A stretch of DNA of 33,205 nt from an uncultured Bacteroidota bacterium. GTDB lineage: Bacteria > Bacteroidota > Bacteroidia > Flavobacteriales > Flavobacteriaceae. Location of the stretch: positions 1 to 33,205 of the forward strand of contig CACJMJ010000010.1 of NCBI GenBank assembly GCA_902594485.1, read 5' to 3'. The translations under genes and the position numbers were made by a program. Under the pieces are notes generated by a model. That model did not search any database and was not told the DNA's origin. It was given only the letters and a program-made list of their open reading frames with translations. How positions within the stretch are numbered: position 1 is the stretch's first letter; each line of letters starts with the position of its first letter. Shown here in pieces: positions 9,301 through 30,208 of the stretch.

Positions 9301-9832
9301 AGGAAAGAGCGAGAAAGTAAGAGAAATAGTTCAAAAATTATCTTTTAAATACTCAGATAGATTAAATTATTTTTCTTCGCTTGAGATATTTAATCAATAT
9401 GATGTAGGAGAGGAAATTATTTCAGATATCGAGAGGTTTAGAAACTTAATTGAAACTATTCAAGAATCTGGTGAAAGAGATATTCTAGCTGATCAAATAA
9501 AAAGTTTTATATCAAGCTCTGAGCAGTTTAACTACATATATGGTGAATATGATTATTATATTTCTCTATCAAACTTTTTAGTTTCACTTTTAGAATTAAA
9601 TGAAGTAGAATACTCAATTAGTGTAATTGATAAAGTTGAAGAACAATTGATTAGAAGAGTCTCTGTTTTCTCAAACATTGATGAAGAAGAACAGGTCTAT
9701 TACATAGAGGGCATAACATCTGATATCAACCAGTACAGCAGGCTAATAAATCAAATAGAAGTATATGATAATGATGCATATAATAAATATGATAAGAATC
9801 TAAAAGATATGTTAGCTAGAATGATTGAATAA
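6323..9832 (+). CDS. DUF2723 family large membrane protein (protein O-mannosyltransferase-like)
   Basis: N-terminus with EPTASYWDAGEYISTSAKLQVGHPPGAPFFQMMGAVFS, multiple TM segments, NERPFEPRERDYALVGSFYIF and a soluble C-terminal part; typical of Bacteroidetes DUF2723 proteins. Confidence 0.85.
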   Translation: MPETKFRKINNLIGWLLFSVALVTYGLTVEPTASYWDAGEYISTSAKLQVGHPPGAPFFQMMGAVFSMFASSNESIAIAVNFLSVVSSAFVILFLFWSTTLFLKKISKKNNFTNDTNILLSSSIGALAFTFSDSFWFNAVETEVYALAMLFLSATFWCGLRWEKDFNNKRGDKWLLLICFLIGLSFGVHFMAILTIPAIGMIYFFKKYKKITIKNFVLANIISVSILLFIFKLLLPSTLSLFGQLEVFFVNSIGLPFNSGTIIAAFLIVFFFYKSLSYTKIKGMVQANTLILCILFIFIGFSSWLMLPIRSNANTVINENSPSDARTLLAYYRLEQYPKTYLFYGPMFSDIYAPQDEKEPYVDGKPKYERDYKTNKYKIVNYWKDSEINSNSNHRGLIPRLWSSNHAGNYMNFTNPLKFEILDRYKSEEVIVESVNEFKSRELKGELTGDDYNEFFRSLGPYLNISKPSLFDNLNFLFSYQINYMYWRYFLWNFAGRQNDIQGEYNILNGNWISGINFIDQLRLGNQSELSEDQKNNKARNIYFFLPLILGLIGLMYCYKYDIKSFWTLLLLFLFTGLALKFYLNERPFEPRERDYALVGSFYIFSIWIGMGFTAIMNYIHKHENKVSRSIIYVLCIAAVPFLMGYNNWDDHDRSDRYTAQSISKAYLQSIDEDRDAMIFTIGDNDTFALWYAQEIEEFRTDVRTINTSLLATDWYIDQMKRRAYESSPIPSQMEHAQYAFGVRDYIRYENLLDSIRWDINDFVDWVASDNPRTKYRNLITQSGGDTSDYPENALETVFYPTNKIRLPVNKENVIKSGLVKEKDSDLIVDYIDIDLPESIITKNQIMMLDILANNDWERPIYFTGGSYEESEYIWMKDYLQLDGLVYKLVPIKTSIENNPYEMGRIDSDLMYDIVKKWSWGNSESDEIYHDPETRKNSISFRGNLSRLSEELISEGDYEKAEEILDLAFSKMPIDYYGYYSLWTPLIKSYYDIGKSEKVREIVQKLSFKYSDRLNYFSSLEIFNQYDVGEEIISDIERFRNLIETIQESGERDILADQIKSFISSSEQFNYIYGEYDYYISLSNFLVSLLELNEVEYSISVIDKVEEQLIRRVSVFSNIDEEEQVYYIEGITSDINQYSRLINQIEVYDNDAYNKYDKNLKDMLARMIE

Positions 9833-19466: not shown

Positions 19467-19502
19467 TTTTAATAATTTTCATTAAAATTAAATCAAAAAA
19501 CG

Positions 19503-19519
19503 TTTAGAATGATTTTAAA
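19503..19519. promoter_or_regulatory. 8-1-8 palindrome TTTAGAAT-G-ATTTTAAA (one mismatch), same motif as in the fbpA/DUF4856 promoter
   Basis: Matches the TTTAGAAC-n-GTTCTAAA pattern; upstream of the 40-aa sORF. Confidence 0.45.
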
Positions 19520-19570
19520 TTACTCATTTACAGTAATTTAAAATGATTATAAATAAAGAAATTAATTGGT

Positions 19571-20533
19571 TTAAGTGAAGAAATTACTACATTTTCTATC
19601 AAATTCTAAAAGATCACTCTTATCAAAATCAATAAATAAATTATTAGTATCCTTTATTGGTGCTGAATTATAAAAGTATATTTCATCTTTATTTAGGGTG
19701 CCTTTTATCTTATATTCCTTACCAATAAATGAAGTTTTTTCAACTTTTAATTTATGCTCTGATTTATCTACAATTTTAATTTTTTCAGGTCTTATATAAA
19801 GCTCTTTACCATCAACATGGATTCTGTTTAGATCTCCTAAAATTTTAGCACAATAACAATTAACTGGATTACAATACATCTCCTCTGGTTTATCATATTG
19901 CTGAACTATTCCTGCTTTAAAAACAAGTATTCTATCTGAAATATCAAAAGTGTCTTTTATATCATGAGTAACTAGAATTGTAGTAGTGTTTGTACTTTTT
20001 AATATTTTATATACTTCATTTTGAATTTTTGATTTAATACTAACATCCAGATTACTAAATGGCTCATCCATAAGAAGAAGATCGGGTTCTCTAATCAAAG
20101 CACGTGTTATACATACTCTTTGTTGTTCTCCACCAGATAATTCGTGAGGATATCGATTTAATAAATTACCCAGCCCAGTAAGTTCGACATAGTACTCAAT
20201 ATTTTTTTCATATTGTTTTTCCAGGTTTATTTTCAGATTCTCTAAAACACTTAGATGCGGAAAGAGAGGATAGTCCTGAAAAATAAATCCAATTTTCCTA
20301 TGGTTTGGTTTTATAAAGGTTGTTTTATTATCTAAAACTCTATTGTTTAATGTAATTTTTCCAGAATTTATTTTTTCAAGACCTGCTAAACATTTCAAAA
20401 AAGTTGTTTTTCCAGAACCACTCTCTCCAATAAAAGAGACAAATTCTCCTTTCTGAACAGAAAAATTTAAATCCTTAATTAATGGATCTTCTTTACTGTA
20501 AAACTTAACTAAATTTTCAATGTTAAGATACAT
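19571..20533 (-). CDS. fbpC: Fe3+-type ABC transporter ATP-binding protein (FbpC/FutC-like)
   Basis: Walker A GESGSGKTTF, signature LSGGEQQRV, Walker B LLLMDEP, TOBE-like C-terminus; operon with permease and binding protein. Confidence 0.85.
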   Translation of the reverse strand: MYLNIENLVKFYSKEDPLIKDLNFSVQKGEFVSFIGESGSGKTTFLKCLAGLEKINSGKITLNNRVLDNKTTFIKPNHRKIGFIFQDYPLFPHLSVLENLKINLEKQYEKNIEYYVELTGLGNLLNRYPHELSGGEQQRVCITRALIREPDLLLMDEPFSNLDVSIKSKIQNEVYKILKSTNTTTILVTHDIKDTFDISDRILVFKAGIVQQYDKPEEMYCNPVNCYCAKILGDLNRIHVDGKELYIRPEKIKIVDKSEHKLKVEKTSFIGKEYKIKGTLNKDEIYFYNSAPIKDTNNLFIDFDKSDLLEFDRKCSNFFT

Positions 20534-22103
20534 CTACGCCTTTGTTTATAATTTTTCTCAAAAATATCAATAAAACTGCACCCAGTAAAATAATAATTAA
20601 AGAGTATATGGAAGATTTTGCAATCATTTCTTCTATTGCATACTCATATGTCCTTACAGCTAAAGTGTCAAAATTAAAAGGTCTTAGAATTAAAGTAATT
20701 GGCAACTCCTTAATTATATCAACAAAACATAAAATAAATGCAATATATATTGAGTTAATATTTATTGGTAAATGAATTTTTTTAAATAATTTAAAATTCG
20801 TCATCCCCAAATTCCTTCCAGTATCATCAAATGTCTCTGGATGTTTATCAAAGCTTGATCTAAGAGGAGATATTCCAACTGCCATATATCTCATTACATA
20901 AGCATATACCAATATTATGACTGATCCAAAAGCTATTGAAACTCCAATTAACTTTGTTAAATATGCTAAAAAAATAATAAGCGATAGAGCTATAACTGCT
21001 CCGGGTAAGGCATATGTAAGTGAGACTATCTCACTTAAGTAAAAAACAGTTTTACTTTTAGATATCTTTTTTATAAACTGAAAAAAAATTGCAATAGCAA
21101 CTATTATTAAAGATGAAACTGAAGCTAAAAAGAATGAGTTTAAGGATAGATTTATTAACTCTCTAAAGTCTATAATATCTATAGTTTTAAAAACATTATT
21201 TATTATATAAATAACTGGAATAAAGAAGCCTAATATAAATGGGAATAAACAGATCAAATATATAGTTATTCTTGAAAATTTATTTGTAGAATAGTTACCG
21301 GATACTTTATCATTTGGTTTATAATTATATCTATATTTTGATGTTGAATATCTTTCTAGTAAAAAGAAAATAGATACAATAATAAGTAAGCAAACAGCTA
21401 AGATTGATGCGGTATTTATATCTTCCATTGAATACCAAGATCTAAATATTCCACTTGTAAAAGTATTTATACCAAAGTACTTAACAGCGCCATATTCATT
21501 TAGTACCTCCATTATAATTAAAAATAAACCTGAGAAAATCGAAACTCTAGATATTGGTAAAATAATCTTGAAAAAAGTTTGAAACTGTGACATTCCAAGG
21601 TTTTTAGAAATATTAATATAATTTGATCCTAGAAGTGAAAAAGATATTCTACATGCAGTATATAAATAAGGGTATAAAACAAGTGCCATCAAAAATGCCA
21701 GAATTTCAATTTGCAAATAATCATGATTTACATACTTATAAAAATCAGGATAATTATTCCTTACTATACTTTGAATGGGACCAGTATAACTTAAAAGATC
21801 ACTGTATGTAAACGCAATTATATATGAAGGAATAGCTAAAGGCAAAAATAGTATAACATCAAAGAAGTTTTTCCCTTTGAAATTTGTTGTAGAAACAAAC
21901 CATGCAGGTATAATTCCAAGTATCAAAGAAAAAAAAACTGTTAGTAATAAAAGATAGAGTGTATTCAATGAATAACCCAATAGAAGATTATTCCATAAAT
22001 ACATAAATGTATCAAGACTTAGTCCAATTACACTATATAAAAGATAGATTAACGGACATAATAAAAAGAGAGAAATAAGTGATGTTAATAGTTTAACATT
22101 CAT
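20523..22103 (-). CDS. fbpB: Fe3+-type ABC transporter permease (FbpB/FutB-like, duplicated permease domain)
   Basis: Two permease halves with EAA-like loops (NLGMSQFQTFFKIILPISR; NLGMTNFKLFKKIHLPIN). Confidence 0.87.
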   Translation of the reverse strand: MNVKLLTSLISLFLLCPLIYLLYSVIGLSLDTFMYLWNNLLLGYSLNTLYLLLLTVFFSLILGIIPAWFVSTTNFKGKNFFDVILFLPLAIPSYIIAFTYSDLLSYTGPIQSIVRNNYPDFYKYVNHDYLQIEILAFLMALVLYPYLYTACRISFSLLGSNYINISKNLGMSQFQTFFKIILPISRVSIFSGLFLIIMEVLNEYGAVKYFGINTFTSGIFRSWYSMEDINTASILAVCLLIIVSIFFLLERYSTSKYRYNYKPNDKVSGNYSTNKFSRITIYLICLFPFILGFFIPVIYIINNVFKTIDIIDFRELINLSLNSFFLASVSSLIIVAIAIFFQFIKKISKSKTVFYLSEIVSLTYALPGAVIALSLIIFLAYLTKLIGVSIAFGSVIILVYAYVMRYMAVGISPLRSSFDKHPETFDDTGRNLGMTNFKLFKKIHLPININSIYIAFILCFVDIIKELPITLILRPFNFDTLAVRTYEYAIEEMIAKSSIYSLIIILLGAVLLIFLRKIINKGVDVS

Positions 22104-22122: not shown

Positions 22123-23142
22123 CTACTTCCAACCTCCAGCGTCAAATATACGAATTGCATCATTTCTTCTAATTCCTAACATATTCAAATCAAGAGGATC
22201 TTTTTTAAAAGTTCCCCACTCTTTTACAATATCATTCGGCTCAATATTTGGTTTTACTGAGTATTCATATGTATTATTTACATATATGTCTTGAGCCTCA
22301 TCACTTGTTAAATATTCGATTAGTTTAACTGCGTTTGATTTGTTTGGAGCATTTTTTGCAAGAGCAACTCCAGAAACATTTATATGAGAACCTCTTTCTC
22401 CATCTGCTTGATTTGGAAAAAACACTGATATTGATTTACCTGCATTTACTTCCTCTTCATTTTCTGATGAAAGTAAAAGCCCAATATAATATGAGTTTAC
22501 AATAGCAACATCTCCCTGACCAGCAGCTATTGCTTTTACTTGGTCTCTATCATTTCCTTTTGGATCTCTTGCAAAGTTTGAGACCACTGCATTAGTCCAA
22601 TTTTGTGTGGCTTCTTCTCCTAAGTTAGCAACAAGAGAAGACATAAGAGCTTGATTGTATGAATTGGATGATGATCTTACTAAAAGTCTTCCTTTCCATT
22701 TTTGATTTGCTAAATCTTCATATGTTGATAGATCACTTTCTTTAACTCTTTCATTACTGTATACAAGAATTCTTGATCTGTAAGTAACTGGCACCCAAAA
22801 ACCATTTGGGTCTATTAAGCTTTCTGTGATTCCCTCTGTTAAACTGTCATCATTATATTTTTGAAGCAGATCCATATCAGATGCTTGCCATAATTTACCA
22901 ACATCAACTGTTATAAATAAATCTGCTGGGCTATTCTCACCTTCATTTTTCATTCTTTGAATTAATTCATCAGCATTAGCCTTGATTACATTTACTTTTA
23001 TACCTGTTTTTTTTTCAAAATTGTCATACTGAAGTTGATCAACATCATAGTGTCTCTGACTATACATATTAACAATTTGTTCCGAATTATTATTTGAACA
23101 AGCTAAAATAAATAGGGCGAGAAGAAGGAATAATTTTTTCAT
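22123..23142 (-). CDS. fbpA: Fe3+ ABC transporter substrate-binding lipoprotein (FbpA/FutA-like); start at MKKLFLL preferred
   Basis: Lipobox LFILACSN; VNMYSQRHYDVDQLQYDNFEKKTGIKVNVI; C-terminal VNNTYEYSVKP as in FutA-type proteins with the Tyr pair. Confidence 0.87.
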   Translation of the reverse strand: MKKLFLLLALFILACSNNNSEQIVNMYSQRHYDVDQLQYDNFEKKTGIKVNVIKANADELIQRMKNEGENSPADLFITVDVGKLWQASDMDLLQKYNDDSLTEGITESLIDPNGFWVPVTYRSRILVYSNERVKESDLSTYEDLANQKWKGRLLVRSSSNSYNQALMSSLVANLGEEATQNWTNAVVSNFARDPKGNDRDQVKAIAAGQGDVAIVNSYYIGLLLSSENEEEVNAGKSISVFFPNQADGERGSHINVSGVALAKNAPNKSNAVKLIEYLTSDEAQDIYVNNTYEYSVKPNIEPNDIVKEWGTFKKDPLDLNMLGIRRNDAIRIFDAGGWK

Positions 23143-23184
23143 ATCTGACTTATTAAAGCACAATATTAAAAAAAATTATTTTTA

Positions 23185-23201
23185 TTTAGACTAATTCTAA
23201 A
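23185..23201. promoter_or_regulatory. Operator-like palindrome 1: TTTAGACT-A-ATTCTAAA
   Basis: 8-1-8 inverted repeat with one mismatch; centre 23193. Confidence 0.55.
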
Positions 23202-23229
23202 TAAATATTTAAATTAGCCATGAAAATAA

Positions 23230-23246
23230 TTTAGAACGGTTCTAAA
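23230..23246. promoter_or_regulatory. Operator-like palindrome 2: TTTAGAAC-G-GTTCTAAA (perfect)
   Basis: Perfect 8-1-8 inverted repeat; centre 23238. Confidence 0.7.
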
Positions 23247-23274
23247 TAATTTAGAAATCAATCAACCATAAACA

Positions 23275-23308: not shown

Positions 23309-24547
23309 ATGAAAATTATAAAAAAAATTAATCATAAACCAATATTATTTTTATTACTAACATCAATCTTTTTTACATCATGTTCGAAAGATGATGAAGT
23401 TGAATATATAACACAAACTGTAACTGAGACTGTTGTAGTAACTGAAACACAAACTGTGACTGTTGAAGTTCCTGTTACACAAACTGTGACTGTTGAGATT
23501 CCTTACTCTTATGAATTTGCAAGAGCTGGAAAACCTACTGTTTCTTTTTCAGGACAAACAGCAAGACTTAATATGGCTGATGAGCTTTATTCTGCATTAA
23601 ATACAAATACATTTTCAAAAGCGAAGATGCTTGAGATGTTTAATGACGGAACTGGATTTACAGACGCAGCACTAAATTCATCTGGTAAAAAGATGGGTAA
23701 TAAAACAGCTGCTTCACCTTTAGCTTCAGCTACAGTTAAGCCTCAATTTGATGCAATGATTGCTGATTTTGCAGACAATGTAATTCCTAATTGGGCAACA
23801 GATGCATCTAATGGTCAAGCGGGAGTTTTAACTGATGTTGCTAGAACTATTCATGTAAATGCAAAAGGTCATGAGATTGATCAAACATTTATCAAGGGAA
23901 TCATTGGAGCAATGACTCTTGATCAAATAGTAAATAACTATATAACTCCATATCAGTTGGATTCAGGAACAAGAACTGCAGATAACACAAACAAAACATT
24001 GTCTAGTGGAAAGGATTATACTGACATGGAACACAAGTGGGATGAAGGCTTTGGATATCTTTATGGTCAAGAAGCTGATGCTTCTAGATTGGACTTAGGT
24101 GTTTCACCTACTGGGAATGGAACGACACTAAATAAATACTTTAAAAAGGTTAATGCCAGCAGTCATCCAGGTATGGCAGTTCAAGTATTCGATGCATTTA
24201 GAAGAGGAAGAGCTTACATTGTTGCTAATCAATATGACAAAAGAGACGAACAAGCTGAAATAATTAAAAAAGAATTATCAAAGCTTATTGCACAGAAAGC
24301 TGTTGATTACATTAACGGTTATATGTCTAAAATTGCGGATGGAAATACAGCTGATGCATTCCATGCACTATCAGAAGGTTATGGTTTTGTAATGAGTCTT
24401 CAGTTCACAAATGACGGAACAGATACGCCATATTTCAGCAACTCTGAAGTAAATGCATTTTTAGCTTCTATGGATAATTTCTGGACTGTTGAGAATTCGA
24501 CTCTTGAGTCTATTAGAGATGAAGTAAAAGCAAAAGCTGGAATATAA
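23309..24547 (+). CDS. DUF4856 domain-containing lipoprotein
   Basis: Lipobox FTSCSKDDE, TVTE/VTVEVP repeats, then YEFARAGKPTVSFSGQTARLNMADELYSALN... and KWDEGFGYLYG, characteristic of DUF4856. Confidence 0.8.
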   Translation: MKIIKKINHKPILFLLLTSIFFTSCSKDDEVEYITQTVTETVVVTETQTVTVEVPVTQTVTVEIPYSYEFARAGKPTVSFSGQTARLNMADELYSALNTNTFSKAKMLEMFNDGTGFTDAALNSSGKKMGNKTAASPLASATVKPQFDAMIADFADNVIPNWATDASNGQAGVLTDVARTIHVNAKGHEIDQTFIKGIIGAMTLDQIVNNYITPYQLDSGTRTADNTNKTLSSGKDYTDMEHKWDEGFGYLYGQEADASRLDLGVSPTGNGTTLNKYFKKVNASSHPGMAVQVFDAFRRGRAYIVANQYDKRDEQAEIIKKELSKLIAQKAVDYINGYMSKIADGNTADAFHALSEGYGFVMSLQFTNDGTDTPYFSNSEVNAFLASMDNFWTVENSTLESIRDEVKAKAGI

Positions 24548-24591
24548 GATTTTAGCTATTTAGTTCTTTTTAATCAATAAGTGAGTTTTAT

Positions 24592-24626
24592 AAATCAGTG
24601 GGGTTCTTAATCCCACTGATTTTTTA
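24592..24626 (+). terminator. Intrinsic terminator/attenuator between DUF4856 and imelysin genes
   Basis: AAATCAGTGGG-gttcttaat-CCCACTGATTT perfect 11-bp stem followed by a T-run. Confidence 0.8.
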
Positions 24627-24638
24627 AATTTTTAAAAA

Positions 24639-25886
24639 ATGAAACATTTATATATTAAAATTTTTATTGCCTTACTTGTAATAGTATCATGTAGTAAGGA
24701 CTCTGATGAAGATTATGGTCAAAATAGTTCTCAGAGTAATGTTCAAACAACAACAAATAGTTCTAGTGGCTCGACAACTGGTACTACAACAGGTACTTCA
24801 ACTGGCACTACAACGGGTACTTCAACTGGCACTACAACTGGCACTACAACTGATAGCTCTTCAAGCCAAGGAGATACTTTTGATAGAGGTTCAATTTTAG
24901 CAAACTATTCTGAAAATATTATTATACCAAGATATAATACATTCAAATCATCTATGGATATCCTAAAAAATAGTATTGAGACTTTTGTTAATTCTCCTAA
25001 TTCTGATAATTATGATGCACTTCAAACTGACTGGATAGATTCATATAAAAAATGGCAATATGTTGAAGTTTTTAATATCAGTAAAGCGGAGGAAATTATG
25101 TATGGATTAAAAATGAACACCTACCCAGTTAGTAAAGAAAGAACTGATAATAATATTGATGAAGGAAAAACTGATCTTACGAATCCTAATGATTGGTCTG
25201 CCCAAGGTTTTCCTGGACTAGATTATATGCTTCACGGAATTGGTGAAACAAAAGATGCTGTAATTGAATTATACAGTTCTGAATCAAAATATGGCAATTA
25301 TTTACTCACTTTAGGTTCTGTAATGAATGAGAATACCATCCAAGTTGTTGATGATTGGACTACGTATAAAGATGTTTTTAATTCATCTGTAGATAATACT
25401 GCTACATCAGCATTCAATATGATGGTCAATGATTTTGTATATTATTTTGAAAAAGGTCTTAGAACAAACAAAATTGGAATTCCTGCTGGAAGATTCTCCT
25501 CTACTCCACTTCCTGATAAAATTGAAGCCTATTATTACTCAAAAAACTCTTTTGGAAATCTTTCAAAAACTCTTGCTCTAGAATCAAGAAAGGGAGTTGA
25601 AGAATTATTCCTTGGTTTAAACTCAGATGGTGTCGAGGGTCCTAGTTACAAATCTTATCTAGACTATCTTGAAACAGAAATAGGAAATAGTGTAAAAACT
25701 AAATTGGAAGAAGCAACTTTAAGTTTAAATGATTTACAAGATAATTTCTTAACTCAAATTGCAGAAAACAATACTTTGATGCTAGTCGCTTTTGATGCAC
25801 TTCAAACAATTGTTGTAAATTTAAAGACTGACATGTTATCTAACTTTAACATTGCGGTAGACTACACTGATGCAGATGGTGATTAA
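24639..25886 (+). CDS. Imelysin family (peptidase M75-like, IrpA/EfeO-M75 superfamily) lipoprotein
   Basis: Lipobox VIVSCSKD, Thr/Gly-rich linker, DWSAQGFPGLDYMLHG motif region and all-helical imelysin-like body. Confidence 0.82.
   Translation: MKHLYIKIFIALLVIVSCSKDSDEDYGQNSSQSNVQTTTNSSSGSTTGTTTGTSTGTTTGTSTGTTTGTTTDSSSSQGDTFDRGSILANYSENIIIPRYNTFKSSMDILKNSIETFVNSPNSDNYDALQTDWIDSYKKWQYVEVFNISKAEEIMYGLKMNTYPVSKERTDNNIDEGKTDLTNPNDWSAQGFPGLDYMLHGIGETKDAVIELYSSESKYGNYLLTLGSVMNENTIQVVDDWTTYKDVFNSSVDNTATSAFNMMVNDFVYYFEKGLRTNKIGIPAGRFSSTPLPDKIEAYYYSKNSFGNLSKTLALESRKGVEELFLGLNSDGVEGPSYKSYLDYLETEIGNSVKTKLEEATLSLNDLQDNFLTQIAENNTLMLVAFDALQTIVVNLKTDMLSNFNIAVDYTDADGD
24780..24852 (+). repeat. 12-bp-register Thr/Ser/Gly repeat (GTTTGTSTGTTTGTSTGTTTGTTT) in the imelysin linker
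   Basis: Repeated ggtactacaacaggtacttcaactggcactacaacgggt... units. Confidence 0.8.
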
Positions 25887-25899
25887 CTAACATATTTCA

Positions 25900-27255
25900 T
25901 TGAATATTTCAAAATATTTAAATAAAAAACAAGACTCTTCAAGCCTAGCAATTTTTCGACTAGGCTTTGGTTTTTTAATGCTATATAGCACTATAAGAAT
26001 ATGGTATAAAGGGTGGATTAGGGAGTTGTATATCGATCCATCATTTCATTTCTCGTATTATGGCTTTGAATGGGTAAAACCAATTGGAGACTATACTTAT
26101 TTAATCTTTTTATTATGTGCAATATCATCATTTTTTGTAGCAATTGGATATAAATATAGAATCTCAATTATTTTACTCTTCTTAAGTTTTACATATGCAG
26201 AGCTAATGGATAAAACAACTTATCTTAACCATTATTATTTGGTTAGCCTGATAAGTTTTCTAATGATCTTTTTTCCTGCAAACGCAAAGTTTTCAATAGA
26301 TAATTTAATTAGTAAAAAATCATACGAATTTATACCCAAGTGGAATGTAGACGCCATAAAATTAATGATCTGTATAGTATACTTTTATGCAGGAATTGCA
26401 AAGATTAATAGTGATTGGCTTATTGATGCTCAACCATTAAAAATCTGGTTAACATCCAAATATGATCTTCCAATTTTTGGTGGTACATTATTTCAGATGG
26501 ATTGGGTTCATGTTTTTTTTAGTTGGGCTGGTATGTTTTATGATCTCTTAATTGCATTCATTTTATTGTATAGAAGGACAAGACCATTTGGATTTTTTCT
26601 TGTAATAACTTTTCATATAATGACAGCGATTCTTTTTCCTGCGATAGGTATGTTCCCTTACATAATGATTACATCTTCTATAATTTTTTTAGAGCCGCAA
26701 ACTCATAAAAAAATATTAGATAGAGTTTCTTCTATATTTAGAAAATACTTCCAAAAAGTGTCTTCTATATCAAATTATAATTTCAAAAAAGCTAAATTTT
26801 CTCAAACTATTTTAGTCATTTTCTTTTCTATCCAGTTACTTTTTCCATTTAGATATTTTCTTTACCCTGGAGAATTATTTTGGAATGAACAAGGATATAG
26901 ATTCTCTTGGAGAGTTATGCTTATAGAGAAAAAAGGGTTCACAGAGTTTAAAATAGTTGACGGAGAAACATCAGAATCATTTTATGTTTTAAATGAAGAG
27001 TTTTTAACTGAGTTTCAAGAAAGACAGATGAGTTTTCAACCAGACTTTATACTAGAATATGCACATTATCTTGGTGACTATTACAATAATAATGGGTATA
27101 ATAATGTTGAAGTTTATGCAGAGAGTTATGTGACATTAAATGGAAGGGAAAGTAAAGTATTTGTTGACCCAAATATTGACTTAATGAAAGAAGAGAGAGG
27201 CTTTTCAAACAAAGAATGGATAACAGAATTAGAGGATGAAATTAAAGGTTTTTAA
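25900..27255 (+). CDS. Vitamin-K-dependent gamma-carboxylase homologue (HTTM/VKGC family), TTG start
   Basis: Polytopic membrane protein with DKTTYLNHYYLVSL, YFYAGIAKINSDWLID, FHIMTAILFPAIGMFPYIMI and a C-terminal domain with LNGRESKVFVDPNIDLM, colinear with animal VKGC as recalled. Confidence 0.85.
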   Translation: MNISKYLNKKQDSSSLAIFRLGFGFLMLYSTIRIWYKGWIRELYIDPSFHFSYYGFEWVKPIGDYTYLIFLLCAISSFFVAIGYKYRISIILLFLSFTYAELMDKTTYLNHYYLVSLISFLMIFFPANAKFSIDNLISKKSYEFIPKWNVDAIKLMICIVYFYAGIAKINSDWLIDAQPLKIWLTSKYDLPIFGGTLFQMDWVHVFFSWAGMFYDLLIAFILLYRRTRPFGFFLVITFHIMTAILFPAIGMFPYIMITSSIIFLEPQTHKKILDRVSSIFRKYFQKVSSISNYNFKKAKFSQTILVIFFSIQLLFPFRYFLYPGELFWNEQGYRFSWRVMLIEKKGFTEFKIVDGETSESFYVLNEEFLTEFQERQMSFQPDFILEYAHYLGDYYNNNGYNNVEVYAESYVTLNGRESKVFVDPNIDLMKEERGFSNKEWITELEDEIKGF

Positions 27256-29659
27256 AATATTAATTATTCTGAGTTTTAACTCACTATTCTCTCAGGAGAA
27301 TTTAAGTGGAGTTATTATAAGCGAATCAACTAATCTACCACTTGAAAATGTGACAATTTTCAACTCTGAAACAAATGAAATCTCTTATAGTGATTCTGAG
27401 GGTAAGTTTATTATTTCAATAAATAATATTGATTCAGAAATAAACTTTTTTCTTGAAGGATATAACCTTTTATCTAAAATTTTCGGTCCACAAGTTTCAG
27501 AATCAAATAATGTCACTATTAGATTGGCTCCAAGAATTGAGGAATTAAATGAAGTTGTGGTAAGGGCAAACCTAAAAAAGATTTTTCAAATTAAAAGATT
27601 TCAAGATGTTGAGGGAACAAGAATATATGCTGGGAAAAAGAATGAGGTGATTCTTATTGATGTTTCAATGGCAAATCTTGCATCAAATAATGCCCGTCAA
27701 ATTTATAATCAGATTCCAGGACTCAATATATATCAAAATGATGATGCTGGACTTCAACTTAATATAGGTGGAAGAGGGCTTAACCCAAATAGAACTGCCA
27801 ATTTTAATACAAGACAAAATAATTATGATATAAGTGCAGATGCATTAGGGTATCCTGAAAGTTATTATACACCACCACCTGAAGGTCTTGAAGAAATTCA
27901 AATATTAAGGGGTGCAGCTTCACTTCAATATGGAACTCAATTTGGTGGGCTTATTAATTTTAAAATTAAGAAACCCAAACCTGAGGAAAGATTTGAGCTG
28001 ATTACTAGAAATACTGCTGGTTCAAATAATCTATTTACAAATTTTACGAGTGTTAGCTCAAGTAATGAAAAATCTAGTTATTATGGTTATGTTAATTATA
28101 AAAATGGAGATGGTTTTAGACCTAACTCTGAGTTTGAATCAATTAATACATTTCAGAATTTCAATTATAATTTAAATGAAAAGTCAAAAATAACAGGAGA
28201 GATAACATACATGGAATATCTTGCTCATCAGGCAGGAGGACTTTCAGATTTTATGTTTGCTAATGATCCTTTTCAAAGTAATAGAGAGAGAAATTGGTTT
28301 GAAATAAAATGGTTTTTATATAATCTAAAATACTTACTTCAAATTTCAGAAGATTCAAGCTTTAGTTTTAATTTTTTTGGTCTAGACGCACAAAGAAATT
28401 CATTAGGTTTTAGAACAAATAGAGTTGATCAAATTGATTATGGTGAAGAAAGAGATTTGATTAAAGGGGACTTCAAAAATTTTGGCTTTGAATCAAGATA
28501 TCTTACTAGCTTTAATTTTTTAAATAAAAAATCTTATCTACTCCTAGGAGCTAAATACTATAATTCATTTTCTCAAAGTGTTCAAGGTCCTGGAAGTAGT
28601 TCTAAGGATGCTGATTTTAATTTTGATTATATAAATTTCCCAAACTATGTAAATCAATCTGAGTACAGTTATCCTAATAATAATTTGGCAATCTTTGGTG
28701 AAAATATTTTTTATATAAATGAAAGTTTATCCATAACACCTGGGTTTAGGTTTGAGAACATAAATACTAGTCTAGATGGTTACTACAGAAAAATTAATCT
28801 AGATGCTGCAGGTAACACAATTTATAATGAAAGATTTGATGAAGAGGATACCAAGAAAAGAAAGTTTCTATTACTTGGTTTAGGACTTAGTTACAAAAAA
28901 AGGGGGCTTGAATTATATACAAATATCAGTCAAAACTTTAGATCTGTAACATTTGCAGATATAAGTATTAGTAACCCTGCTTATGCTATAAATCCTAATA
29001 TTGATGATGAGAAAGGGTTTACATTTGATATAGGTTTTAGAGGAAACTATAAAAAAATGATTTCCTTTGACTCTAGTATTTTTGCACTTATATATAGAGA
29101 CAGGATTGGGTTTATCCAAAAAGTATTTAGTGATGGTAATGTGAAGAGTGAGAGAGGTAATGTAGGGAATGCCCAAATAACAGGTGTTGAATCTTTATTT
29201 GATTTTGATATAAATGAAATTCTATTTAAAAATGAAGATGTAGATTTTAATATTTTTTTTAATTATTCTTATATAGAATCTAAATATTTAAAATCTAATG
29301 AAGTAGGAATAACAGGAAAAGAAGTTGAATTTGTTCCTAAAAATAATTTTAAAACAGGTTTAAAATTTGGTTATAAAGATTTTGCAATTAATTTTCAATA
29401 TTCATACCTGTCAAGTCAATTTACAGACTCTTCAAATGCTATATCAGGAAATCTAAGTGGAGTAATTGGTCAAATTCCTTCCTATGAAATTTCTGATTTA
29501 TCAATGTCATACAAACTAAGAAACATTAAATTTGAAGCTGGAGTCAATAATTTATTTGATGAAATATATTTTACAAGGAGAGCCACAGGATATCCTGGCC
29601 CCGGAATAATTCCTTCTCCTCCAAGAAATAGTTATATAACTTTAGAAATCAAACTATGA
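27236..29659 (+). CDS. TonB-dependent receptor (FecA-like), with CarboxypepD_reg-like N-terminal domain
   Basis: Signal peptide, plug motif (QIPGLNIYQNDDAGLQLNIGGRGLNPNRTANFNTRQNNYDISADALGYPESYYTPPPEGLEEIQILRGAASLQYGTQFGGLINFKIKKP), beta-barrel and C-terminal ...YITLEIKL. Confidence 0.92.
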   Translation: MKLKVFKILIILSFNSLFSQENLSGVIISESTNLPLENVTIFNSETNEISYSDSEGKFIISINNIDSEINFFLEGYNLLSKIFGPQVSESNNVTIRLAPRIEELNEVVVRANLKKIFQIKRFQDVEGTRIYAGKKNEVILIDVSMANLASNNARQIYNQIPGLNIYQNDDAGLQLNIGGRGLNPNRTANFNTRQNNYDISADALGYPESYYTPPPEGLEEIQILRGAASLQYGTQFGGLINFKIKKPKPEERFELITRNTAGSNNLFTNFTSVSSSNEKSSYYGYVNYKNGDGFRPNSEFESINTFQNFNYNLNEKSKITGEITYMEYLAHQAGGLSDFMFANDPFQSNRERNWFEIKWFLYNLKYLLQISEDSSFSFNFFGLDAQRNSLGFRTNRVDQIDYGEERDLIKGDFKNFGFESRYLTSFNFLNKKSYLLLGAKYYNSFSQSVQGPGSSSKDADFNFDYINFPNYVNQSEYSYPNNNLAIFGENIFYINESLSITPGFRFENINTSLDGYYRKINLDAAGNTIYNERFDEEDTKKRKFLLLGLGLSYKKRGLELYTNISQNFRSVTFADISISNPAYAINPNIDDEKGFTFDIGFRGNYKKMISFDSSIFALIYRDRIGFIQKVFSDGNVKSERGNVGNAQITGVESLFDFDINEILFKNEDVDFNIFFNYSYIESKYLKSNEVGITGKEVEFVPKNNFKTGLKFGYKDFAINFQYSYLSSQFTDSSNAISGNLSGVIGQIPSYEISDLSMSYKLRNIKFEAGVNNLFDEIYFTRRATGYPGPGIIPSPPRNSYITLEIKL

Positions 29660-30057
29660 GTAAAAGCTTAAATAATGAGATTATAATTTATGATGGTATA
29701 TGTGTGCTATGTAATTACTTTATTCAATTTATTTTAGAAAAAGATAGAAAGGCTCATTTTAAAGTAACAAATCTTCAAAGTGAATTTACAAAAACAAAAT
29801 ATCCAGAAATTCTAGCTGTTGATTCAGTTGCAGTTATTTTGGAAAATGGAAAAATTTTGCAAAAAAGTAAAGCAGTCTACTACATTTTACAAAAAATTAA
29901 AGTCTTACTATTAATCAGAGTTTTAATTTATGTTTTTCCAATATTTTTTTCAAATATAGTCTATGACTTTATTGCTCTGATTAGATACAAATTATTTGGA
30001 AAATACTCCTATTGTCCCGTACTCAAAGGGGATTTAAAAAATAGAATAATTGAATAA
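29656..30057 (+). CDS. DCC1-like (DUF393) thiol-disulfide oxidoreductase
   Basis: IIYDGICVLCNYFIQFILEKDRKAHFKVTNLQSE; ATGA overlap with the TonB receptor stop. Confidence 0.87.
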   Translation: MSKSLNNEIIIYDGICVLCNYFIQFILEKDRKAHFKVTNLQSEFTKTKYPEILAVDSVAVILENGKILQKSKAVYYILQKIKVLLLIRVLIYVFPIFFSNIVYDFIALIRYKLFGKYSYCPVLKGDLKNRIIE

Positions 30058-30097
30058 GAAAAACTTATGAACCTATAACGATATTTTTTAATTACTA

Positions 30098-30114
30098 TTT
30101 AGAATAAATCTATA
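30098..30114. promoter_or_regulatory. Weak match to the operator motif (TTTAGAAT-A-AATCTATA) upstream of hemA
   Basis: Full left half-site, right half 6/8 to ATTCTAAA; isolated TTTAGAAC half-site 44 bp further at 30142. Confidence 0.25.
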
Positions 30115-30208
30115 TTAAACAAAGGAACTTCAAACAATACTTTTAGAACCTTAAGCGTTATTATTTGTATCCATCTTAAAATTAAATTTGCAAATATTAA
30201 TTTAGAAT

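What the first reader, a model, noticed from the sequence alone, without database searches (positions are those of the whole stretch)
23309..30057. Putative iron-uptake operon built around a vitamin-K gamma-carboxylase homologue: DUF4856 - imelysin - VKGC/HTTM - TonB receptor - DCC thiol oxidoreductase, divergent from fbpABC
Seen: five tightly packed plus-strand genes (25 to 90-bp gaps, then a 20-bp overlap and an ATGA overlap) opposite a complete Fe3+-type ABC operon and followed by hemACDB. The VKGC homologue appears full length. From memory of animal GGCX, DKTTYLNHYYL aligns with the region of His160 and YFYAGIAKINSDWL with that of catalytic Lys218, and the C-terminal LNGRESKVFVDPNIDLM resembles the ...INDRFQQRIFDPRVDIV... 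segment. Known: VKGC carboxylates Glu to Gla (metal-binding) using reduced quinone; imelysins (IrpA/EfeO-M75) and FecA-like receptors are iron-linked; DCC proteins carry a CxxC and often accompany HTTM domains. Inference: the carboxylase may modify a partner (imelysin, DUF4856 or the receptor) to make a Gla-type iron-binding surface, with DCC supporting thiol/quinone redox. I cannot tell whether this association has already been described.
Basis: partly seen in the sequence, partly recalled or inferred. Interest (0 to 1): 0.8.

Follow-up and report, generated by a model that had tools for sequence, protein, structure and literature searches.

The report
Iron-uptake operon with clotting-enzyme relative
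Many flavobacteria carry a fixed four-gene set, apparently switched on by iron starvation, that pairs surface iron-linked proteins and an outer-membrane iron receptor with a close structural relative of the vitamin-K enzyme that activates animal blood-clotting proteins; what that enzyme modifies in bacteria is unknown, and this operon is a good place to find out.

Summary
DUF4856 - imelysin - VKGC - TonB receptor keep this order in 67 of 67 loci with room on both sides. VKGC and imelysin co-occur across 297 Bacteroidota genomes, and operon-linked VKGCs form one clade. The VKGC folds like human GGCX (TM up to 0.86) and keeps Lys218, His160, Asn159, the vitamin-K-pocket Phe residues and usually Tyr395, but lacks most of the propeptide-binding region. 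All 75 promoters tested carry a Fur-box-like palindrome; the divergent ABC importer is FutA-type. A published Riemerella table already lists a matching Fur-responsive gene run, without discussion. Iron uptake is well supported.

Glu carboxylation is not shown. No operon protein has a Gla-domain-like Glu cluster, conserved imelysin Glus do not track VKGC, VKOR does not co-occur, and DCC is confined to near relatives. The imelysin is IPPA-type, elsewhere paired with a di-haem oxidoreductase. Best reading: a variant of the imelysin iron system with a menaquinol-dependent VKGC acting in the periplasm, most likely on the imelysin. Chemistry and target remain to be tested.

The parts
23184..23202 (.). 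Fur-box-like palindrome ATTTAGACTAATTCTAAAT
   Evidence: Exact match to ATTTAGA-N5-TCTAAAT; reported Riemerella Fur box is ATTTAGAATTATTCTAAAT (PMC5609570); a box with <=2 mismatches lies upstream in 75/75 operons against about 1.4/75 in shuffled sequence
23229..23247 (.). second Fur-box-like palindrome ATTTAGAACGGTTCTAAAT
   Evidence: Exact match, 45 bp after the first; a second exact site is kept in L002-L005
23274..23292 (.). third, degenerate Fur-box-like site ACTTAGGACCGTTCTAAAT
   Evidence: Two mismatches, 45 bp after the second
23309..24547 (+). DUF4856 lipoprotein, predicted surface-exposed (C-S-K-D-D-E after the lipobox)
   Evidence: PF16148 E 2.7e-94; weak match to FEA1_rel_lipo far below cut-off; AF2 pLDDT 93, no PDB fold match; export-signal motif C-X-K-(D/E)2 from PMC5080379
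24639..25886 (+). IPPA-type imelysin lipoprotein (GFPxxDY instead of GxHxxE, C-terminal DGD)
   Evidence: PF09375 E 8.5e-25; motif and tail counts; profile match to 3pf0, which also ends in DGD
25900..27255 (+). VKGC homologue: HTTM membrane domain plus VKGC lumenal domain
   Evidence: PF05090 and PF22777; human GGCX phmmer 9.3e-45; Foldseek TMq 0.81-0.86 to most GGCX entries; catalytic residues kept
27236..29659 (+). FecA-like TonB-dependent receptor with CarbopepD_reg N-terminal domain
   Evidence: PF00593, PF13715, PF07715; only PDB hits at E <= 1e-10 are FecA, best E 1.6e-22
29656..30057 (+). DCC1-like thiol-disulfide oxidoreductase (CVLC); lineage-specific addition, not part of the conserved core
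   Evidence: PF04134 E 1.1e-18; present in 11 of 68 relatives
22123..23163 (-). FutA/FbpA-type ferric-binding protein (first ORF start given; an internal ATG at about 23142 is likelier)
   Evidence: PDB 6g7n E 9e-95, 2pt1 1e-94; RHYD and NSYY stretches shared with 6g7n
20523..22103 (-). fused ABC permease, two transport stretches
   Evidence: PF00528, two stretches
19571..20533 (-). ABC ATPase of the presumed Fe3+ importer
   Evidence: PF00005 E 2.3e-35

Best explanation
This is a Fur-controlled ferric-iron uptake module. Two surface lipoproteins (DUF4856 and an IPPA-type imelysin) and a FecA-like TonB receptor bring iron across the outer membrane, and a FutA/FbpABC importer takes it across the inner membrane. 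The VKGC sits in the inner membrane with its catalytic face to the periplasm. It uses menaquinol, O2 and probably CO2, by the GGCX mechanism, to modify a partner that passes through the periplasm on its way to the surface. The most likely partner is the imelysin, by carboxylation of one or a few Glu residues rather than a Gla domain. Shown here by sequence evidence: gene order, Fur-box conservation, fold and active-site residues. Inferred: that the enzyme is active, that it carboxylates, and which protein it acts on. My estimates: iron-uptake operon 0.95; active quinol-oxygenating enzyme 0.75; carboxylation of an operon partner 0.35-0.4.
For: Order DUF4856-imelysin-VKGC-TBDR in 67/67 loci, VKGC/TBDR overlap of 20 or 23 bp in 54 of 77 measured. 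VKGC-imelysin co-occurrence Fisher p 8e-45; 60 of 80 VKGC copies within 6 kb of a same-strand imelysin. Operon VKGCs form one clade, 100/99. Invariant in 99/99 operon sequences: K218, H160, N159, W223, F286, F294, F299, G259, W399, M402 (human numbers); Y395 is Y in 83 and F in 16 (residue roles from PMC12589487). AF2 pLDDT 92.5; all 16 significant Foldseek hits are GGCX. Fur-box-like sites in 75/75 promoters; fur gene in this genome. Riemerella TBDR/VKGC/imelysin/hypothetical rise under iron limitation. FutA-type binding protein, FecA-like receptor. The imelysin is the steadiest partner: kept in operons without recognisable DUF4856 and in L129, where an imelysin-DHOR unit precedes imelysin-VKGC-TBDR.
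Against: No Gla-domain-like Glu cluster in any operon protein. Conserved imelysin Glu271 and Glu296 occur in most of the close VKGC-less relatives examined. The bacterial protein ends near human W501, so most of the propeptide-binding and arch regions are absent. K217, R436, H404 and N158 are not kept. VKOR does not co-occur with VKGC. From my knowledge of the literature, not re-read here, the Leptospira VKGC homologue showed epoxidase but no detectable carboxylase activity.
Confidence: 0.45

Rival explanations
1. The VKGC keeps the quinol-oxygenation (epoxidase) half of the reaction but not Glu carboxylation. It uses menaquinol and O2 for another periplasmic job in iron uptake, such as a strong-base or redox step on a chelator or on bound iron.
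For: The vitamin-K pocket is nearly fully kept while part of the Glu/backbone contacts is not (N158 to L, R436 to Q, H404 lost). No Glu cluster in partners. Close IPPA-type imelysins elsewhere pair with another redox enzyme, a di-haem oxidoreductase, and one cluster has both. Leptospira homologue reported as epoxidase only (my knowledge).
Against: The residues that hold the Glu side chain in GGCX (N159, H160, and Y395 in 83/99) are kept. The non-operon copies mostly have His at the Tyr395 position, so Tyr/Phe there marks the operon clade.
Confidence: 0.33
2. The VKGC carboxylates DUF4856 or the TonB receptor rather than the imelysin.
For: DUF4856 has four Glu kept at 94-100% (E189, E241, E246, E356) with conserved His242 and His352, metal-site-like. 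TBDR is translationally coupled to VKGC in most loci.
Against: DUF4856 is not recognisable in 14 imelysin-VKGC loci and occurs without VKGC in four genomes. An isolated operon-clade VKGC in G108 (L100) has no neighbouring TBDR or DUF4856.
Confidence: 0.15
3. The VKGC homologue is a non-catalytic membrane scaffold or chaperone for export of the lipoproteins.
For: No direct activity data; most of the propeptide-binding region missing.
Against: Invariance of catalytic Lys, His, Asn and pocket residues in 99/99 operon sequences is not expected of a scaffold.
Confidence: 0.07

Closest known systems
Animal vitamin-K-dependent gamma-glutamyl carboxylase (GGCX)
   Same: HTTM plus lumenal domain, fold (TMq up to 0.86), Lys218, His160, Asn159, usually Tyr395, vitamin-K-pocket Phe residues
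   Different: About 450 against 758 residues; most of the propeptide-binding and arch regions absent; K217, R436, H404 and the C99-C450 disulfide not kept; no known substrate
Leptospira VKGC homologue (from memory, not retrieved)
   Same: Bacterial VKGC homologue
   Different: Reported as epoxidase without detectable carboxylase; its gene context was not checked here. Leptospira LruB sits in an imelysin-DHOR-imelysin operon near a TBDR
Imelysin-DHOR-imelysin (Efe-like) iron systems, e.g. PA4370-PA4372 and the LruB operon
   Same: Iron-regulated; contains an IPPA-type imelysin, with C-terminal DGD in those examined here; can lie near a TBDR
   Different: Here VKGC and DUF4856 stand where those systems have DHOR and a GxHxxE imelysin; both modules are joined in L129. 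A search of Xu et al. 2011 for carboxylase or HTTM found no mention
Riemerella anatipestifer RAYM_09779-09794 (Fur-responsive TBDR, VKGC, imelysin, hypothetical)
   Same: Same gene set judging by consecutive locus tags and names; iron and Fur responsive
   Different: Listed in a table only; the VKGC association was not discussed, and the hypothetical was not verified here as DUF4856
Capnocytophaga ICS (Sus-like iron capture system)
   Same: Bacteroidota iron uptake system
   Different: Seven-gene SusC/SusD-type locus as described in PMC5429918; no VKGC or imelysin named

Membership tests
VKGC/GGCX family | HTTM domain followed by VKGC lumenal domain | tested here: met
   Pfam PF05090 7.8e-78 and PF22777 3.7e-57
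VKGC/GGCX family | GGCX fold | tested here: met
   AF2 pLDDT 92.5, Foldseek TMq up to 0.86, best E 5e-23
VKGC/GGCX family | Catalytic Lys218 and His160 | tested here: met
   K168 and H111, invariant in 99 operon sequences
VKGC/GGCX family | Glu-binding residues N159, Y395, R436 | tested here: inconclusive
   N159 kept 99/99, Y395 is Y 83 / F 16, R436 always Gln
VKGC/GGCX family | Full propeptide-binding and arch region | tested here: not met
   Protein ends near human W501
VKGC/GGCX family | Carboxylase activity making Gla | not testable with these tools
   Needs biochemistry or proteomics
Vitamin K cycle with VKOR | Co-occurring VKOR | tested here: not met
   17/70 VKGC genomes against 56/227 others, p = 1
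Gla-domain protein | Dense conserved Glu cluster in a partner | tested here: not met
   At most 2-4 conserved Glu per 45 aa
Imelysin family (GxHxxE) | GxHxxE motif | tested here: not met
   GFPxxDY in most operon imelysins
IPPA-type imelysin | M75 family without the motif His, GxxxxE, aligned to IPPA | tested here: inconclusive
   PF09375 hit; profile aligns to 3pf0 through its own DGD end; DGD end in 88/90. Motif His absent as in IPPA, but the motif Glu is Asp in 92%
Fur-regulated iron-uptake operon | Conserved Fur box at the promoter | tested here: met
   75/75 with <=2 mismatches; Fur binding to this promoter itself not tested
FutA/FbpA ferric-binding protein | Close sequence match to solved ferric-binding proteins | tested here: met
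   6g7n 9e-95, 2pt1 1e-94
FEA1-related lipoprotein | NCBIfam cut-off | tested here: not met
   29.9 bits against cut-off 250; weak match in 16 of 46 members

The most novel reading that the evidence does not exclude
Bacteria use a vitamin-K-type carboxylase, driven by respiratory menaquinol, to install gamma-carboxyglutamate in a surface iron-capture lipoprotein: a prokaryotic Gla system for iron, with recognition that needs no animal-type propeptide groove.
Probability: 0.35. Interest if true: 0.88.

Novelty: new variant of a known kind. Interest (0 to 1): 0.62.

Why it matters
As far as I know, bacterial VKGC homologues have been without a physiological setting. A fixed, single-clade neighbourhood with a conserved Fur box gives one, names three candidate substrates and says when to look (iron limitation). 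If any carries Gla, protein gamma-carboxylation would have a bacterial role in metal capture. If none does, the same operon is the place to learn what else VKGC chemistry is for. Either way the question of what bacterial VKGC does becomes testable with one mass-spectrometry experiment and one deletion.

Tried and rejected
VKOR-based vitamin K cycle: VKOR shows no association with VKGC. DCC as core partner: only in near relatives. Glu-rich N-terminal linker of DUF4856 as a Gla region: present in the window's near clade and a few others, not conserved. C-terminal DGD as a VKGC-specific tag: also present in VKGC-less imelysins and in 3pf0. DUF4856 as an imelysin relative: no profile match beyond the signal peptide (one-sequence template, so weak) and no imelysin among the fold matches shown. 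Simple replacement of DHOR by VKGC: L129 has both in one operon. Capnocytophaga ICS as the same system: different gene content. Riemerella B739_1343 and TbdR1 as the operon receptor: nothing in the papers places them here, and B739_1343 is reported not iron-regulated and without a Fur box.
Full report
1. What is there. Gaps are 91 and 13 bp, then overlaps of 20 and 4 bp. The divergent operon is a full ABC importer. Its binding protein is closest to FutA-type ferric-binding proteins of known structure (6g7n 9e-95, 2pt1 1e-94). The receptor's only PDB hits at E <= 1e-10 are to FecA. hemA, hemC and hemD follow; hemB is not in the window.

2. Conservation. 80 relatives were fetched and classified. 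In the 67 with room on both sides of VKGC, the order DUF4856-imelysin-VKGC-TBDR is kept in all 67. DCC is found in 11 of 68 with room, so the core is four genes. The ABC importer is divergent in 11 loci and downstream on the same strand in 3, which ties it to the operon. In 297 Bacteroidota genomes, VKGC is in 70 and imelysin in 71, with 62 holding both (Fisher 8e-45). 60 of 80 VKGC copies have a same-strand imelysin within 6 kb, and 47 of 51 DUF4856 copies lie near a VKGC. VKGC copies without imelysin are mostly another group, several next to ribF. The operon-linked copies form one clade (100/99), which also holds a single copy that has lost its neighbours (L100).

3. Is it a VKGC? Yes by sequence, domain order and fold. 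Human GGCX gives the only PDB sequence hits (9e-45). The AF2 model (pLDDT 92.5) has 16 significant Foldseek hits, all GGCX, TMq up to 0.86. Residues were mapped on the human numbers, with roles taken from the cryo-EM paper PMC12589487. Lys218, His160, Asn159, Trp223, Gly259, Phe286, Phe294, Phe299, Trp399 and Met402 are invariant in 99 operon sequences. Tyr395 is Tyr in 83 and Phe in 16, whereas 9 of 10 copies without a neighbouring imelysin have His there. Not kept: Lys217 (Ala or Thr), Asn158 (Leu), Arg436 (Gln), Met401 (Val), His404, and the C99-C450 disulfide. The protein ends near human Trp501, so most of the propeptide-binding and arch regions are missing.

4. Iron control. Two exact copies of ATTTAGA-N5-TCTAAAT and one degenerate copy lie 45 bp apart in the divergent promoter. 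The Fur box proposed for Riemerella is ATTTAGAATTATTCTAAAT (PMC5609570). Upstream of DUF4856, a site with at most two mismatches occurs in 75 of 75 loci, against about 1.4 of 75 in shuffled sequence. Upstreams of all long plus-strand ORFs in the same loci give about 11 per 75, an over-count because they include the operon itself and possibly other Fur targets. Exact copies also precede the operon in more distant families (L096, L105, L107). A fur gene is in this genome. In Riemerella, consecutive locus tags for TBDR, VKGC, imelysin and a hypothetical protein rise under iron limitation. That is prior publication of the regulation, as table rows without comment on the VKGC.

5. The lipoproteins. 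Both carry acidic residues after the lipobox cysteine in most loci (72 of 75 and 68 of 78). In the window DUF4856 starts C-S-K-D-D-E after the lipobox, matching the surface-export signal C-X-K-(D/E)2 (PMC5080379). So both are predicted to be on the cell surface, after passing the periplasm where the VKGC catalytic face should lie (inference from GGCX topology). The imelysin is not the GxHxxE type: most read GFPxxDY, and 88 of 90 end in DGD. The solved IPPA structure 3pf0 ends the same way. VKGC-less relatives of this type sit after a di-haem oxidoreductase (DHOR) and a second imelysin. In L129 both modules are one string of overlapping or abutting genes: imelysin, DHOR, imelysin, VKGC, TBDR. 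The operon is therefore best described as a variant of the imelysin iron system. DUF4856 models with high confidence but matches no PDB fold; 16 of 46 members hit FEA1-related lipoprotein weakly, far below cut-off.

6. What does the VKGC do? For carboxylation: the side-chain Glu ligands Asn159, His160 and usually Tyr395 are kept. Against an animal-like Gla system: no operon protein has more than 2-4 conserved Glu in 45 residues; the two fully conserved imelysin Glus occur in most of the close VKGC-less relatives examined; VKOR does not co-occur with VKGC (17/70 against 56/227). I therefore favour modification of one or a few Glu in the imelysin, with the epoxidase-only reading close behind. 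The imelysin is preferred because it is the steadiest partner, also where DUF4856 is not recognisable. Activity, substrate and even the use of menaquinone are inferred from GGCX and from flavobacterial respiration in general.

7. Novelty. The parts are known families, and iron regulation of the set is in one published table. Searches of 5.39 million open papers found one paper with both 'imelysin' and 'gamma-carboxylase' and none with 'imelysin' and 'HTTM'. Subscription papers were not searched, so I cannot say that nobody has noted it. New to me here: the depth of conservation, the single clade, the residue map, the shared Fur box and the link to the imelysin-DHOR system.

Noticed in passing
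window 30097-30115, upstream of hemA (30209): Fur-box-like site ATTTAGAATAAATCTATAT, one mismatch; a one-mismatch site is also found upstream of hemA in all 8 relatives checked, suggesting that haem synthesis here may be under Fur.
   Followed up: partly
L090-L093, L108, L109: A separate VKGC paralogue clade, several copies next to ribF (FAD synthetase), mostly with His at the human Tyr395 position and no imelysin nearby. Function unknown.
   Followed up: partly
window 25860-25886 and operon imelysins: Operon imelysins end in a nearly invariant C-terminal DGD (88/90), usually after DxD; also in VKGC-less imelysins and PDB 3pf0. Role unknown.
   Followed up: partly
L129 5088-12200: Composite gene string imelysin - DHOR - imelysin - VKGC - TBDR, overlapping or abutting, joining two iron modules.
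   Followed up: yes
window 23309-24547: DUF4856 gives a confident AF2 model with no match in the PDB and has conserved MEH..DE and HxLSE stretches that look like a metal site.
   Followed up: partly
L126 5203-9079: A divergent DUF4856 beside a TonB receptor with no VKGC or imelysin detected nearby, with an exact Fur-box-like site at 9350-9368.
   Followed up: no
window 19502-19554: Three Fur-box-like matches with 2-3 mismatches between the histidine kinase and the ABC ATPase gene; this mismatch level is expected by chance.
   Followed up: no
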